Program-made: the position numbers and the translations under genes | In this document: piece by piece, positions 2 through 6,995 of the stretch | Layout: every line of letters begins with the position of its first letter | How positions within the stretch are numbered: position 1 is the first letter of the stretch | From: Gemmatimonadota bacterium | GTDB lineage: Bacteria > Latescibacterota > UBA2968 | DNA: 39,630 nucleotides | Reading direction: 5' to 3' | Assembly (NCBI GenBank): GCA_009838845.1 | Contig: VXRD01000116.1 | Coordinates: forward strand, 1 to 39,630 | The notes under the pieces: model-generated | Database searches by the model: none | What the model saw: the letters and a program-made list of their open reading frames with translations, nothing else | Told to the model about the DNA's origin: nothing

Positions 2-907
2 CGCCCACACCCCCCACCACCCCCACCCTATCCTTCGCCAGCGCCAGTCGCGTTCCACCCCCCCGGCCTCGGCGGACGAGGGGGACGAGGGGGACGACTA
101 CAAAACATACAACAACGCATTACCCGGAATCTGGAGGCTCTACAAGGCGGACGAGGACAAGGAGGTCGAGGAGGGCGAGGGGGACGAGGCGGTCGAGGAG
201 GACCACCGATCAACGGCAAGACAATGGATATGGCGAGAATTGATGAGGTCGTGCGATTGGGAGACATTGAGATTTGGGAAGTGCATAATCGCGGCGGTCA
301 GCCTCACCCTTTCCACCTCCATCCGGTCCAGTTTCAAATTCTCGACCGCAACGGCCAACCATCCACCAGTGCCGACCTCGGCTGGAAAGACACAGTCCTG
401 GTGCCTCCAGGTGATCTCGTTCGGATCATCATGGCCTTCGATCGATATGCTGATCCTCAGGTACCATACATGTACCACTGCCACATCCTGGAACACGAAG
501 ACAACGGGATGATGGGACAGTTCCTGGTTGTGGAAGAGCCAGAGCAACTCAGCCTGATCACTGGCAAGACAACCGTCGTCACATTCATCACTGGCGTTCA
601 ATGCGGGCATTGTTACGAGCACGCGCGTTTGTTCGACGAGGTGCTTCGGGAGAACGACATCAACCTGGTGATCATCACGCCAGAATCCGAGCCGGACCAG
701 GAGAGAGTTGCTGTGCTGTCATCGAGCCTAATCTCTGACACTGCTGGCAAATGGGCAGGCTGGTTTGGAATGGCCCACACCGGCCCAACGCACGGCACAG
801 TCCTGCTGGATACGACCGGCGAGGTCGTCTGGAAGTCCACAGCCCCCGAACCATACATGGATGTCCAAAATCTCGTGAACCGTGCGAAAAATCTGCCGGG
901 CAGATAA
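2..907 (+). CDS. Multicopper oxidase, C-terminal part, fused to a thioredoxin-fold domain (5' end outside window)
   Basis: The frame is open from base 2 to the TAA at 905-907, so the gene starts before the window. A Gly/Arg-rich segment (about residues 24-68 of the visible part) precedes a cupredoxin domain with the copper motifs HPFHLH and YHCHILEHEDNGMM, typical of the third domain of CotA/CueO-like laccases. Such enzymes oxidise phenols, bilirubin-like compounds or metals and pass four electrons to O2. After the usual end of an oxidase (about residue 180) another ~120 residues follow with VTFITGVQCGHCYEH, a thioredoxin/peroxiredoxin-like strand plus a CGHC site. The oxidase call rests on the copper motifs and is firm; the redox role of the C-terminal domain is inferred. 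The signal peptide and first domains are not visible. Confidence 0.88.
   Translation, partial: RPHPPPPPPYPSPAPVAFHPPGLGGRGGRGGRLQNIQQRITRNLEALQGGRGQGGRGGRGGRGGRGGPPINGKTMDMARIDEVVRLGDIEIWEVHNRGGQPHPFHLHPVQFQILDRNGQPSTSADLGWKDTVLVPPGDLVRIIMAFDRYADPQVPYMYHCHILEHEDNGMMGQFLVVEEPEQLSLITGKTTVVTFITGVQCGHCYEHARLFDEVLRENDINLVIITPESEPDQERVAVLSSSLISDTAGKWAGWFGMAHTGPTHGTVLLDTTGEVVWKSTAPEPYMDVQNLVNRAKNLPGR
71..203. repeat. Gly/Arg-coding low-complexity repeat
   Basis: Short G-rich units of the type GGNCGAGGN recur in two blocks (71-98 and 146-203) separated by about 47 bp. In the oxidase frame they give GGRGGRGGR and GGRGGRGGRGG. The blocks flank a short non-repetitive peptide (LQNIQQRITRNLEALQ). Simple repeats like this can change length by slippage. 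Confidence 0.8.
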
Positions 908-2862: not shown

Positions 2863-4197
2863 CTATTTTCCCGAATTTGAGGCTCTCCTGGGTTCAATAG
2901 GGATACCCCGGTCAGCCTTCCATTTTCTGAGGGCTTGTCCCCATTTGCCCGGTCTGGCGTCTTCTGGGGTCAGGATCTTCTTATCAGCGTTGTACTTAAA
3001 TCCCTCAAGAGTCACGTTCTCGATATCGACGCGATATGTCCCATTTGTGTAATCCTTTACCGCCCCGATCGATGGCCCATCAAAGAATTTTGTGACCTTT
3101 CTTAGCCTCAGATCATCGTAGTATTCTTCCGGGATATTCATCATTTCGTGTGTTTTTACCTGCGCATCTTTCCCAAAAATCGCGTGAATATTTTTGATGG
3201 AACACCCATCGGCAAAGCGTCCGGGTTTTGCGTCGGGATTTCTCGCCTGTTCGGCCTTCTTGACGTTCCCCCTGCCTATGGTGACCGCATATGTACTGCT
3301 TTGGGACGTGACACCATCGACATGAACCAATCCATTGTTCGCGCTGTGAGGTCCAAGCATGACAGCACAGCGGCCATTTTCAGAGGTGATGTTTCTGGCT
3401 GTAATGTCATAAACTGCCGTGTGATCTCCCACAGCACCCGTTTCCAGTCTCAGGGTGACGCCTCCCTTTGCGTAAAGATCTTCGAAGTGCAACGATTGTG
3501 CGCCGTGTAACTGGACGAGTCCATATCCCGGGCTGGCGTTGAAGATGCGACAATTTCGGATGGTTCCATCAGTAGCGCGAGAGATCTCCCAATGTTTCAC
3601 ATTTTCGTTGCGCGACCGTGTAGGAGTCATCGTCAACCCACAATAGACCGTGAAGTTATCTTTTATATCGAGATCGGAGATGAGGAAATTTCTGACCATT
3701 CTGCACAAGACGGTGCGGATGCCCTCTTCTTCCCGCCGCTCCCGGTCGGAATAATCGACGATGAACCGTCCGCCGAGTCCCCTAATGCTGACGTTCTCAA
3801 TAAATTCATTTCCCCTTTGCTTAGGTCCCCTCCCGGATGTATCCTCATAGTCCAGGATGAAAATAACGGTTTTTGTACCTTCTGGCCAATAGGGCTTGAT
3901 GACTGTATCTTTTTCGATCAACAGGTGTACATTCGATTTGAGATAGACTTTTGCAAAACGATAGGTTCCTTTCGGAATAATAAGCCGTCCACCGCCTGCG
4001 GCTGCGACGTCGTTGATCGCCTTCTGCAAAAGCGCACTCTGGTTGGTTTTTGCATCGTCATCGACCAGGCCGTAATCGGATTTGAGGTCTTGCACAAAGC
4101 TATTTGTATCCATGGCCTCCTGGTATCTGGCGCTGACCGTTGTGACCCCTGAGATAAGCGTGAGGGTCATGAGACCGAGTATCAGGGTGAGCTTCAT
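2863..4197 (-). CDS. Secreted pectate-lyase-like right-handed beta-helix protein
   Basis: 444 residues. A classical signal peptide (MKLTLILGLMTLTLISG, cleavage near VSA|RYQ) indicates export. The N-terminal block DDAKTNQSALLQKAINDVAA followed by GGGRLIIPKGTYRF is the entry of the Pectate_lyase_3/GH28 beta-helix fold, and later segments (IENVSIRGLGG, FEDLYAKGG, IENVTLEGF) are helix coils. These proteins cleave or bind acidic polysaccharides such as pectin or sulfated or uronic glycans. The start at 4197 is supported by AAGGAGA at 4204-4210. It is the last gene of the minus-strand run, 22 nt behind the sulfatase gene, and the only one of the twelve with an obvious signal peptide. I do not see a clear catalytic signature that separates lyase from hydrolase. 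Confidence 0.8.
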   Translation of the reverse strand: MKLTLILGLMTLTLISGVTTVSARYQEAMDTNSFVQDLKSDYGLVDDDAKTNQSALLQKAINDVAAAGGGRLIIPKGTYRFAKVYLKSNVHLLIEKDTVIKPYWPEGTKTVIFILDYEDTSGRGPKQRGNEFIENVSIRGLGGRFIVDYSDRERREEEGIRTVLCRMVRNFLISDLDIKDNFTVYCGLTMTPTRSRNENVKHWEISRATDGTIRNCRIFNASPGYGLVQLHGAQSLHFEDLYAKGGVTLRLETGAVGDHTAVYDITARNITSENGRCAVMLGPHSANNGLVHVDGVTSQSSTYAVTIGRGNVKKAEQARNPDAKPGRFADGCSIKNIHAIFGKDAQVKTHEMMNIPEEYYDDLRLRKVTKFFDGPSIGAVKDYTNGTYRVDIENVTLEGFKYNADKKILTPEDARPGKWGQALRKWKADRGIPIEPRRASNSGK

Positions 4198-4219
4198 AAT
4201 AGATTCTCCTTGTTTTATA

Positions 4220-5617
4220 TTAGTGTTCGGTGGTTTTTTGAGAATTCCCTGTCGGGTATGGTTCCGCATTGTGTTTTGGCAACCAGGATGACAGTTCTTG
4301 TTTGACCGAAACATACGCTTCCCGATCTGCCAGATTGTGGAACTCTTGCCCATCGTTTTGATGGTCGTATAATTCTTCCGAGCCATCCTCATATCGGATA
4401 TAACGCCACCTATCCGATCTTATTGCATGATTATTGAATCCCTGTGTACAGACCACTGCGCGATGGGTCTCTTCCTCTGGGTTATGCAGCAAAGGGACCA
4501 GACTCACGCCATCAAAATCTCCTGATATTTTACCGCCTGACAATTCGATCAGTGTAGGATAAATATCGAGCAGGCTGACAGCCTGTTTGCAGACCTTGCC
4601 CGAAGCAATCTCTCCAGGCGCAACGATGATCATCGGTACCCGCGTGGTCTGCTCCCACAATGCAAATTTCTCCCAATGCTCCTTTTGCCCCAGATGATAC
4701 CCATTGTCTGACCACAAAACAACAATAGTATTTTCGGCGTGAGGTCCATTTTGAAGTGCAGCTAATAGACGCCCAACCATGTCGTCGGTAAAACTGACAG
4801 CCGCATGATATGCCTGAACAGCCTCTTTCCATTTGTCATTTTCAACCATCCATTTGTGCCATGTACGCCTGACCATAGCCTGACCCGCTTCTGGCACATC
4901 ATCCAGATCATTTTCAAGAACCTCAGGTACTGCAACTTCGTCATAGGGATGTCTCTCGAAATATTTTTCTGGCACATACCAGGGAATATGCGGTCGATAG
5001 ATCCCCGCGGCCAGAAACAAAGGCTGACCATGGTCTTGAGACAGTTGTTGCTCTGCCCACGACACGACTTTGGCATCGGCCATTTCTCCAGTTTCAATAT
5101 CCAATGCCGCCCAATCAAAATATCCGCGATAAAACTTTTTGCTCCCATTTACAGGCCAAACATCTGGCGCGACTTCTTGAGGCATTTGACGGTCTTTTGA
5201 TGGAAAGTATTCGTCCCAGGGGCGGGGATCAAGATATCCCTCATACATCTTTTCGCTCAGGGTCGCCCCGTGGTACACCTTTCCGCCACCAAGGGTTTTG
5301 TACCCCTTGTCCTTAAAATATTGAGGCAGTGTAACCCTATCTTTCAGGCTCTTACATTTTCTCCAATCCTGCCTGTTGAGATACACGCCCGATGTCGATG
5401 GAGCCAACCCGGTCATCACACTTACACGTGAAGGATTGCAGGCAGGAGCTGCGCAATGTGCATTGGTAAAATACACGCCCTTTTGGGCAAGCGCATTCAT
5501 ATTGGGAGTGTGAACAGAAGTTTCTCCATTCATCGCATCGGGACAACCGCATAAATCGTCAATGGCGATAAAGAGCACATTGGGTTGATTGCTTTTATTT
5601 TCTTTGATGTCTGCCAT
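4220..5617 (-). CDS. S1-type sulfatase, iduronate-2-sulfatase-like
   Basis: 465 residues. Type I sulfatases hydrolyse sulfate esters using formylglycine made from the Cys of C-x-P-x-R; here C60 in CNPSR. Metal ligands are suggested by the IAIDD segment (D20, D21) and by WSDNGYHLGQKEHWEK. The segments LPQYFKDKGYKTLGGGKVYH and NGYHLGQKEHW resemble the iduronate-2-sulfatase branch. There is no signal peptide. An ATG at 5635 (overlapping the upstream gene by 11 nt, with AAAGGA before it) is a real alternative to 5617. The gene is coupled to the preceding sulfatase and followed after 22 nt by the beta-helix gene. A sulfated sugar substrate is likely; which one is not determinable. Confidence 0.9.
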   Translation of the reverse strand: MADIKENKSNQPNVLFIAIDDLCGCPDAMNGETSVHTPNMNALAQKGVYFTNAHCAAPACNPSRVSVMTGLAPSTSGVYLNRQDWRKCKSLKDRVTLPQYFKDKGYKTLGGGKVYHGATLSEKMYEGYLDPRPWDEYFPSKDRQMPQEVAPDVWPVNGSKKFYRGYFDWAALDIETGEMADAKVVSWAEQQLSQDHGQPLFLAAGIYRPHIPWYVPEKYFERHPYDEVAVPEVLENDLDDVPEAGQAMVRRTWHKWMVENDKWKEAVQAYHAAVSFTDDMVGRLLAALQNGPHAENTIVVLWSDNGYHLGQKEHWEKFALWEQTTRVPMIIVAPGEIASGKVCKQAVSLLDIYPTLIELSGGKISGDFDGVSLVPLLHNPEEETHRAVVCTQGFNNHAIRSDRWRYIRYEDGSEELYDHQNDGQEFHNLADREAYVSVKQELSSWLPKHNAEPYPTGNSQKTTEH

Positions 5618-5624
5618 GAACTGC

Positions 5625-6995
5625 CTAATCCTCATCGTGTCCTTTGAATCCCATAGATGGATCGAGAATCTCGCCTTCGCGAACCGGTGTATGAGCGTCC
5701 CCGGCATACTGCGTCATCTTCTCGAGGATGTCAGGATACTGAGCAGCGACATCGTTCAGTTCTTCAATATCTGTGCTCAAGTCATACAACTCAAACGGCC
5801 CGTCTTTATCTGGTCTCACGGCTTTCCAACTCCCCATACGAACAGCGCAACTTTTCCGATCCTCCCAGTACAGGTACTCGTGCTGCTCCTGCTTGCGCTC
5901 GGTCTCACCATGCAATGTGGGCAAGATTGAAATGCCGTCGATATCAGACCCAATCTTCGCCCCCGTCAGTTCCGCCAGAGTAGGCATCACATCGGGAAAG
6001 TATCCCAGGTGCTCAGAAAACGTTCCTGGCTCGATCTGACCCGGCCACCGGACGATGAAGGGAACCCGTAGCCCGCCTTCATAGAAATTGCCCTTGCCCC
6101 CGCGGAAGCGTTCGCCCGTCCCGGGATTCAGATTGGGGGCAAAAAAGCCATGTGGATGGTTCTCGTTTGCGAAATAAGGAGCGCCACCATTGTCGCCACA
6201 AGCAAAGATGATGGTCTTCTCGTCAATCTTCAACGCCTTCAGCAGATCCATGATCTCACCGATCTGGCGATCAGCCATTTCCATCATCGCGGCGTACATC
6301 TGTGTATCGTAAGGTCCTCTCTGGTTCGTGGCATCCCATTTCACGTCCTTGTACTTCTGCCAGGCCGGATCCGATTCGGGCATCATCCACTGGCCGTGCG
6401 GAGGCGTCCACGGAAGATAGGCAAAGAACGGACGATCTTTATTCTCTCGTATGAACTTCAGCCCTTCTTCATAGATGAGGCCATGGGAGAACACCTCGCC
6501 AGTGTGGAAACCACCTGTATTCCCCTCCAGATACATCTTCTCGCTGTTGCGGAGAAGGTATCTCGGGTAGTACGTGTGTGCATGCACCTGATGATAATAA
6601 CCGAAGAAAGTATCAAAGCCGTGTTTCTCTGGCACGCCCGTTGTCCCGGCATCGCCCAGGCCCCACTTGCCGAAACCGCCAGTCGCGTAGCCCTCGGCTT
6701 TGAGCATTTCAGCGATCGTCATATCATCTGTACGCAGTGCCAGACCGCCGCCATTTGCGCGGATTGTTGTGTGACCCGTATGCCGACCTGTCATCAGCGC
6801 ACAGCGGGTCGGAGCACAGACATTACCTCCCGCAAGCATTTGAGTAAACTGGATGCCCTCAGACGCCATCTTGTCGATATTGGGCGTCTGAAGAATGGGA
6901 TGACCCATGGCGGACCACTCAAAATATCCCCACTCATCCAGCATGATATAGATGATATTCGGCTTCTCAATGCCTGCGATGTTTTGTTTTTCCAT
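5625..6995 (-). CDS. S1-type sulfatase (arylsulfatase A-like)
   Basis: 456 residues. C60 in CAPTRC followed by ALMTGRHTGH is the formylglycine motif. The first metal motif reads LDEWGY, with Glu where most family members have the second Asp, a conservative change. FACGDNGGAPYF provides the later Asp/Asn ligands and GGKGNFYEGGLRVPFIVRW is the conserved substrate-side block. No signal peptide: the protein begins directly with KPNIIYIMLDEW. AAGGGAG lies upstream of the ATG at 6995. It stands between the GH32-like gene (29 nt) and the iduronate-sulfatase-like gene in the same transcription unit. The two adjacent sulfatases belong to different subfamilies and so probably attack different positions of one substrate. 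Confidence 0.9.
   Translation of the reverse strand: MEKQNIAGIEKPNIIYIMLDEWGYFEWSAMGHPILQTPNIDKMASEGIQFTQMLAGGNVCAPTRCALMTGRHTGHTTIRANGGGLALRTDDMTIAEMLKAEGYATGGFGKWGLGDAGTTGVPEKHGFDTFFGYYHQVHAHTYYPRYLLRNSEKMYLEGNTGGFHTGEVFSHGLIYEEGLKFIRENKDRPFFAYLPWTPPHGQWMMPESDPAWQKYKDVKWDATNQRGPYDTQMYAAMMEMADRQIGEIMDLLKALKIDEKTIIFACGDNGGAPYFANENHPHGFFAPNLNPGTGERFRGGKGNFYEGGLRVPFIVRWPGQIEPGTFSEHLGYFPDVMPTLAELTGAKIGSDIDGISILPTLHGETERKQEQHEYLYWEDRKSCAVRMGSWKAVRPDKDGPFELYDLSTDIEELNDVAAQYPDILEKMTQYAGDAHTPVREGEILDPSMGFKGHDED

What the first reader, a model, noticed from the sequence alone, without database searches (positions are those of the whole stretch)
2..907. Multicopper oxidase fused to a CGHC thioredoxin-fold domain
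The laccase-type copper motifs are followed in the same open frame by ~120 residues with a CGHC site in a thioredoxin/peroxiredoxin-like context. Such a fusion would join a four-electron O2-reducing enzyme with a thiol redox or copper-delivery function. I do not know of this as a described laccase architecture.
Basis: partly seen in the sequence, partly recalled or inferred. Interest (0 to 1): 0.5.

Follow-up and report, generated by a model that had tools for sequence, protein, structure and literature searches.

The report
Copper oxidase with inserted thioredoxin domain
In one genus of uncultured Latescibacterota bacteria a membrane-anchored copper oxidase has gained a whole thioredoxin-like domain just before its end, which may let one protein handle both copper and thiols.

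Summary
The window's first ORF (2-907, +) is the 3' half of a CueO-type multicopper oxidase (MCO) followed in frame by a Redoxin/thioredoxin-fold domain with CGHC. A contig edge cuts it; the 5' half ends another contig of the same genome. Full-length versions (about 650-690 aa) occur in 6 more genomes of the genus, one a single contig; the MCO was not found in the other 4. The domain did not join end to end: a 324-bp in-frame block sits about nine codons before the ancestral stop, shown by DNA homology on both sides with an unfused Binatota MCO (86% identical). Fused rows form one clade among unfused relatives. Both Cys are invariant in 7 of 7, dN/dS is 0.21, and His fills the position that is cis-Pro in thioredoxins and Arg in peroxiredoxins, which might permit metal binding. 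Most likely the domain serves its own oxidase as a thiol-reductase or copper-handling module, like the separate CutG/CopG or TlpA/Sco proteins; this is inferred. Models of the domain are of low confidence, though nearly all listed fold matches are thioredoxin-fold. Literature listings showed no such MCO. New variant of a known kind.

The parts
2..907 (+). 3' part of the MCO-redoxin gene, cut by the contig edge; stop at 905-907
   Evidence: full-length relatives of 654-693 aa; 5' half on G000:C67
1..66 (.). contig-edge bases whose translation does not match relatives, probably assembly noise beside the GC-rich repeat
   Evidence: by eye
71..205 (+). Gly/Arg-rich (RGG-like) tract before the Cu-oxidase_2 match, variable in length among relatives; roughly where CueO has its Met-rich insert (recalled)
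   Evidence: position relative to CueO chains
206..535 (+). Cu-oxidase_2 (third cupredoxin domain)
   Evidence: E 2.4e-27
305..322 (+). HPFHLH copper-ligand motif
   Evidence: sequence; its three His invariant in the 30 rows of A2, which holds L018 and not the window
476..511 (+). HCHILEHEDNGM: T1 Cys, T3 and T1 His, axial Met (ligand roles recalled)
   Evidence: sequence; His, Cys and Met invariant in the 30 rows of A2
554..877 (+). 324-bp in-frame insert coding the redoxin/thioredoxin-like domain (borders uncertain by about a codon)
   Evidence: flanks align with unfused L022 on both sides; Pfam Redoxin
602..613 (+). CGHC active-site motif (CEHC in 3 of 7 rows)
791..793 (+). His codon at the position that is cis-Pro in thioredoxin/TlpA types and Arg in peroxiredoxins
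   Evidence: H in 3 of 33 rows (2 fused, L120), P in 15, R in 15; invariant in 7 of 7 fused rows
878..904 (+). ancestral C-terminal tail of the MCO (NRAKNLPGR), homologous to HRTKNLPGN of L022
   Evidence: 29 of 36 bases identical from window 881 on, across the stop codon
971..1774 (+). next gene, 267 aa; PhyH-like by eye only
   Evidence: the G007 orthologue has no Pfam hit at E 1e-5 or better

Best explanation
A membrane-anchored, probably periplasmic CueO-type multicopper oxidase into which a redoxin domain was inserted in frame about nine codons before the stop, most simply in the ancestor of one Latescibacterota genus. Shown: fusion, insertion point, intact copper-ligand motifs, conserved CxHC, purifying selection, His at the cis-Pro position. 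Inferred: export and topology, and that the C-terminal domain works in cis on the oxidase beside it, keeping the T1 Cys and substrate copper in the right redox state and/or binding copper (two Cys plus a nearby His) and passing it to the MCO. It would do in one chain what separate TlpA/Sco or CutG/CopG thioredoxin-fold proteins are proposed to do for other periplasmic copper enzymes.
For: Fusion intact in 7 of 11 genus genomes. Insertion flanks. Fused rows form one group, 100/100, among unfused relatives. MCO body: Cu-oxidase_3 5.1e-33 and Cu-oxidase_2 4.3e-30; best Foldseek matches are bacterial MCOs of CueO type (8z59, 7.5e-49; CueO 6evg, 1.6e-47); HWHG, WYHPHPHG, HPFHLH and HCH...M present in L018. 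Outside the N-terminal hydrophobic segment L018 has only the T1 Cys and the CxHC pair. dN/dS 0.21 for the redoxin, 0.13 for domain 3. His at the cis-Pro column; the Trx-fold atlas says cis-Pro may prevent metal binding and that Arg sits there in peroxiredoxins (PMC2757866, passages). Precedents: cutO/cueO clustered with copG/cutG in several genomes, CopG a Cu-binding thioredoxin-like protein (PMC7558416 section 6.5); CutO activity about 50% without CutG (PMC8456105, passages); TlpA reduces ScoI and COX II (PMC6696091, passages), before metallation according to PMC7558416 (passages).
Against: No biochemical data. No copper-handling family among the ten G007 neighbours scanned, two of which had no family at all, so no genetic link to copper beyond the MCO itself. 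The domain lacks the CxxxC of Sco and the CxCC of CopG, and its His is not in Sco's His column in my alignment but about two residues away. CutG's Cu-binding motifs were dispensable for CutO activity (PMC8456105), and the review reports only a small effect of deleting cutG (PMC7558416). Close relatives do without the domain (76 of 80 loci), and 10 of 11 genus genomes carry a separate Sco. The fold model of the domain is poor (pLDDT 52).
Confidence: 0.45

Rival explanations
1. A copper-based sulfhydryl oxidase: the redoxin collects electrons from protein dithiols and passes them to the T1 copper, so the MCO reduces O2 while disulfides form, the way QSOX joins a thioredoxin domain to a flavin oxidase.
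For: Both domains in one chain with no second hydrophobic segment between them in a Kyte-Doolittle scan, and no Cys outside the N-terminal segment besides T1 and CxHC. QSOX is a known Trx plus sulfhydryl-oxidase fusion (PMC3616962, abstract start in a search listing).
Against: No shuttle Cys pair near the T1 site. The redoxin is placed with low confidence, so no geometry can be read. I know of no MCO doing this (recall).
Confidence: 0.15
2. The domain is a peroxiredoxin-like peroxide scavenger that protects the oxidase from leaked H2O2.
For: Pfam Redoxin and AhpC-TSA families.
Against: Peroxiredoxin marks absent: Cys at the column where the 15 Arg-type rows have Thr or Ser, and His in place of the Arg.
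Confidence: 0.08
3. The domain is a passive attachment or partner-binding module; the CxHC is a structural disulfide or vestigial, and the insertion is near-neutral.
For: Found in one genus only; the MCO was not found in 4 of 11 genus genomes; the residue between the Cys varies G/E.
Against: Both Cys and the His invariant in 7 of 7 rows; dN/dS 0.21.
Confidence: 0.25
4. Assembly or chimera artefact.
For: The window's copy is broken at a contig edge in a GC-rich repeat.
Against: The join lies well inside contigs in the relatives, one a single contig, with synonymous divergence (mean dS 0.16) between copies.
Confidence: 0.01

Closest known systems
CueO/CutO-type multicopper oxidases
   Same: Three cupredoxin domains, full set of copper-ligand motifs, MCOs of this type are the best structural matches.
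   Different: N-terminal hydrophobic anchor, Gly/Arg-rich tract instead of a Met-rich one, extra C-terminal redoxin.
CutO with operon-encoded CutG/CopG (thioredoxin-like copper protein)
   Same: Pairs an MCO with a periplasmic thioredoxin-fold protein (PMC7558416, PMC8456105).
   Different: Separate proteins; CopG uses CxCC and Met; here Redoxin family, CxHC, one chain.
TlpA/ResA and Sco proteins
   Same: Thioredoxin fold with a Cys pair; among the better fold matches of the low-confidence model.
   Different: TlpA/ResA have cis-Pro, Sco has CxxxC; here CxHC with His at the cis-Pro place; not stand-alone.
TPR-redoxin protein L120 (genome G110, phylum of the Acidobacteriota locus L026)
   Same: Nearest relative of the inserted domain found by profile search (E 4.0e-7): shares GxQCxHCxE, His at the cis-Pro column and P[FY]MD.
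   Different: 25% identical; joined to TPR-like repeats (by eye), not to an MCO.
QSOX
   Same: Trx domain plus an O2-using oxidase in one chain.
   Different: Erv sulfhydryl oxidase in eukaryotes (listing); flavin, no copper (recalled).

Membership tests
Three-domain multicopper oxidase (CueO/laccase type) | Cu-oxidase_3, Cu-oxidase and Cu-oxidase_2 domains | tested here: met
   on L018: 5.1e-33 and 4.3e-30; the middle domain 20.4 bits, just under its cut-off of 21, but an MCO fold over the whole body
Three-domain multicopper oxidase (CueO/laccase type) | T1, T2, T3 copper ligand motifs | tested here: met
   on L018; invariant His/Cys columns
CueO proper | Met-rich insert in domain 3 (recalled) | tested here: not met
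   tract is Gly/Arg-rich
CueO proper | Cuprous oxidase activity | not testable with these tools
   needs protein
FtsP/SufI | loss of copper ligands (recalled) | tested here: not met
   ligand motifs present
Redoxin/AhpC-TSA (Pfam) | score over Pfam Redoxin cut-off | tested here: met
   27.3 (window), 29.9 and 34.3 (L018, whole and domain) against 26.6; AhpC-TSA passes its cut-off of 26 only for the two isolated domains (28.8, 28.7)
Peroxiredoxin | Thr-x-x-Cys site with conserved Arg | tested here: not met
   Cys at the Thr column, His at the Arg column
TlpA/ResA thiol-disulfide oxidoreductase | CxxC | tested here: met
   CGHC/CEHC
TlpA/ResA thiol-disulfide oxidoreductase | cis-Pro | tested here: not met
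   His
Sco1/SenC | CxxxC and distant His, SCO1-SenC profile | tested here: not met
   CxxC; no SCO1-SenC hit listed at E up to 1; His about two residues off the Sco His in alignment
CopG/CutG | CxCC plus two Met | tested here: not met
   no CxCC
QSOX | Erv flavin sulfhydryl oxidase domain | tested here: not met
   no such Pfam hit listed

The most novel reading that the evidence does not exclude
A self-contained copper sulfhydryl oxidase or self-metallating oxidase: the inserted redoxin, with CxHC and His in place of cis-Pro, forms a copper/thiol site that exchanges electrons and copper directly with the T1 centre of the MCO in the same chain, so that O2 reduction is coupled to thiol chemistry.
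Probability: 0.2. Interest if true: 0.7.

Novelty: new variant of a known kind. Interest (0 to 1): 0.42.

Why it matters
It would put a thioredoxin-fold domain and the copper enzyme it may serve on one chain, making the poorly understood thiol and copper steps of MCO maturation testable with a single protein. It is also a clean case of domain gain by insertion inside a gene's last codons, with close unfused relatives still present in other bacteria.

Tried and rejected
Assembly artefact: rejected. Operon origin (a downstream thioredoxin gene fused by loss of the MCO stop): not supported, because the ancestral MCO tail lies after the domain, and none of 10 ORFs beside unfused relatives (from L022, L023, L024, L026, L028, L032, L035) hit a redoxin family; two of the ten hit nothing, and one of those two (L022:3120-4118) may be a wrong frame.

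Donor search: the inserted domain alone found no other full copy in 64 Latescibacterota genomes (besides the seven fused copies only a 22-residue remnant in G004), none in 297 genomes of the phylum of L022 (the tool warns that an empty answer without a known positive shows nothing), one distant relative in 396 genomes of the phylum of L026, and no plasmid match. In the 14 genomes of the nearest relatives there was one hit at E 0.017, inside a 1019-aa frame that looks unrelated. The donor stays unknown. L120 itself has weaker relatives in 9 more of 41 genomes of its class (E 1e-12 or better); I did not check their His column.

Other MCO-redoxin fusions: with a profile of domain 3 plus redoxin, 118 of 396 genomes of L026's phylum matched, and no row printed ran past position 131 of 227 (the match list was cut). 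I fetched 20 of the longer-frame MCOs from it and read their tails by eye: short, Ig-like or Cys-rich, none thioredoxin-like; three more with very long frames likewise. This was reading, not a domain search. Most other phyla were not surveyed, so such fusions elsewhere are not excluded.

A PDB profile search with the domain alignment gave seven weak hits (E 0.83-0.88), pyrophosphatase/phosphoglucomutase chains, taken as chance. A haloarchaeal plasmid redoxin related to L120 (L171) has Arg at the column by eye, as a peroxiredoxin does. My first script to test the His column kept only 2 of 30 loci because its filter was too strict; the second kept 30 of 30. A link through neighbouring FGE/sulfatase genes was considered and left as an aside: adjacency may be chance.

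Full report
What is there. The first ORF of the window (2-907, +) is open at the contig edge and codes the third cupredoxin domain of a multicopper oxidase followed without a break by a redoxin domain with CGHC. The window is contig C116 of a 172-contig genome. The missing 5' half (94% identical to the relative L018) ends three bases before the end of contig C67 of the same genome. Both contigs stop in the GC-rich repeat that codes a Gly/Arg-rich tract.

The whole protein. Six more genomes of the genus (G001, G002, G003, G007, G009, G010) carry the full gene in one frame, with 91-96% identity over the 227 residues compared; counting the window's genome, 7 of 11 genus genomes. The other four (G004, G005, G006, G008; 91-99% complete) gave no match to the MCO part (a query for the first 394 residues of the same protein did match in the five carriers tested). 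G004 keeps a remnant of the 3' end, 55-70 bp. Named records place the genus in Candidatus Latescibacterota; one of the four is titled Gemmatimonadota. L018 (654 aa) has one N-terminal hydrophobic segment by a Kyte-Doolittle scan, four copper-ligand motifs, and only four Cys: one in that segment, the T1 Cys and the CxHC pair. No signal-peptide or topology program was run; export is inferred. AlphaFold2 gives most of the MCO body high confidence, and the best PDB matches are bacterial MCOs of CueO type.

How the domain got in. The closest unfused MCO (L022, Binatota, 86.5% identical to L002) ends EEPEQLS-HRTKNLPGN-stop. The window reads EEPEQLS-[108 residues]-NRAKNLPGR-stop. At DNA level the 36 bases from the tail of L022 across its stop codon match the window from 881 on at 29 of 36; the same place in the other fused loci compared gives 25-28, and the best other place among 211,454 compared gives 22. 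So a 324-bp in-frame block (window 554-877, borders uncertain by about a codon) lies inside the end of an older MCO gene. In a 23-row tree (21 of the 80 loci plus L002 and L004; the window row left out because truncated) the six fused rows form one group with 100/100 support, inside unfused MCOs of Binatota, Myxococcota and Acidobacteriota (97/95 for the fused rows with L022, L023 and L035; drawn with a midpoint root, and the program warned of long branches among the distant rows). One insertion is the simplest history; a gain in an ancestor shared with L022 followed by exact loss in L022 is not excluded, since the order of L022, L023+L035 and the fused clade is unresolved. Bin names of several of these records suggest sponge metagenomes; that is recall, not checked.

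What the domain is. Pfam Redoxin is passed. The isolated-domain model is poor (mean pLDDT 52, pTM 0.53), and the same region is mostly under 50 in the full model, but the order of elements is that of a thioredoxin fold, and nearly all of the 50 rows listed by each program are named thioredoxin-fold proteins: TlpA/ResA types, Sco, peroxiredoxins, glutathione peroxidases, thioredoxins (Foldseek best E 2.4e-4; VIA-align Z up to 7.5, and the tool notes that Z under 8 may mean only a common arrangement). The nearest sequence relative found is the redoxin end of a TPR-like protein in genome G110, of the phylum of L026. In an alignment of 33 rows (2 fused, L120, 30 loci) one column holds Pro in 15 rows, all with Cys or TGA at the first active-site place, Arg in 15 rows, all with Thr or Ser there, and His in the two fused rows and L120. 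The thioredoxin atlas describes cis-Pro there as possibly preventing metal binding, and Arg in peroxiredoxins (PMC2757866, passages). Sco's copper His falls about two residues away, so this is at most an analogous site. Selection is purifying (dN/dS 0.21 over 21 pairs of 7 sequences).

How it most likely works. The oxidase part should be an ordinary extracytoplasmic MCO; its substrate is unknown, and the CueO-like Met-rich insert is missing. The attached dithiol domain most likely serves the same chain: reducing the T1 Cys before copper entry, or binding and handing over copper. Precedents are separate proteins: TlpA and Sco for cytochrome oxidase (PMC6696091, passages) and CopG/CutG beside CueO/CutO (PMC7558416 section 6.5; PMC8456105 passages). 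Against it, mutating CutG's metal motifs did not significantly lower CutO activity there; the ten neighbours scanned in G007 are a sigma-54/Reg_prop regulator, an FGE-type protein, a pectate-lyase-like protein, sulfatases, PhyH proteins, a GFO/IDH oxidoreductase and two without a family, none of them a copper family; and a separate Sco exists in 10 of 11 genus genomes. All function statements are inference.

Novelty. Four full-text searches of the open library listed no paper whose title or abstract start describes an MCO with a thioredoxin or redoxin domain; two searches showed only 15 of 141 and 10 of 737 papers. Of the three papers I looked at passages of two (PMC11561398; PMC7558416) and did not open the third (PMC9029284) or the six. 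A paper on sponge-associated Latescibacterota holds no 'copper', 'laccase' or 'thioredoxin' in its main text (PMC12993501, term search). The library lacks most subscription journals, and domain-architecture databases could not be queried, so such fusions may be known or exist elsewhere. I rate it a new variant of a known kind.

Noticed in passing
L132 (G000:C142:1898-2212) and 11 other loci: Redoxin genes of the phylum have an in-frame TGA at the first active-site Cys (mostly GYW-TGA-PHC): 12 of 30 aligned loci, which suggests selenocysteine-containing redoxins.
   Followed up: partly
L017 (G004:C1), L015, L016, L012 against L011: Gene order and orientation around the MCO differ among species of the genus; G004 lacks the MCO but keeps 55-70 bp of its 3' end.
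   Followed up: partly
window 71-205; L018-L021 domain 3: The Gly/Arg-rich tract differs in length between relatives, and the window's assembly breaks in it; related unfused MCOs have mostly shorter Gly/Gln/Arg versions.
   Followed up: partly
L024, L026, L028: Unfused MCOs of Acidobacteriota also sit beside sulfatase genes, while L022, L023 and L035 sit beside ApbA-type reductases.
   Followed up: no
L011:3745-6921: 1058-aa single-chain regulator joining propeller repeats (Reg_prop, Y_Y_Y) to a sigma-54 activator domain, upstream of the MCO.
   Followed up: no
window 2863-6995: Pectate-lyase-like and sulfatase genes on the minus strand: a sulfated-glycan region (ORFs; families from the G007 orthologues for the first two; the third a sulfatase by eye).
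   Followed up: no
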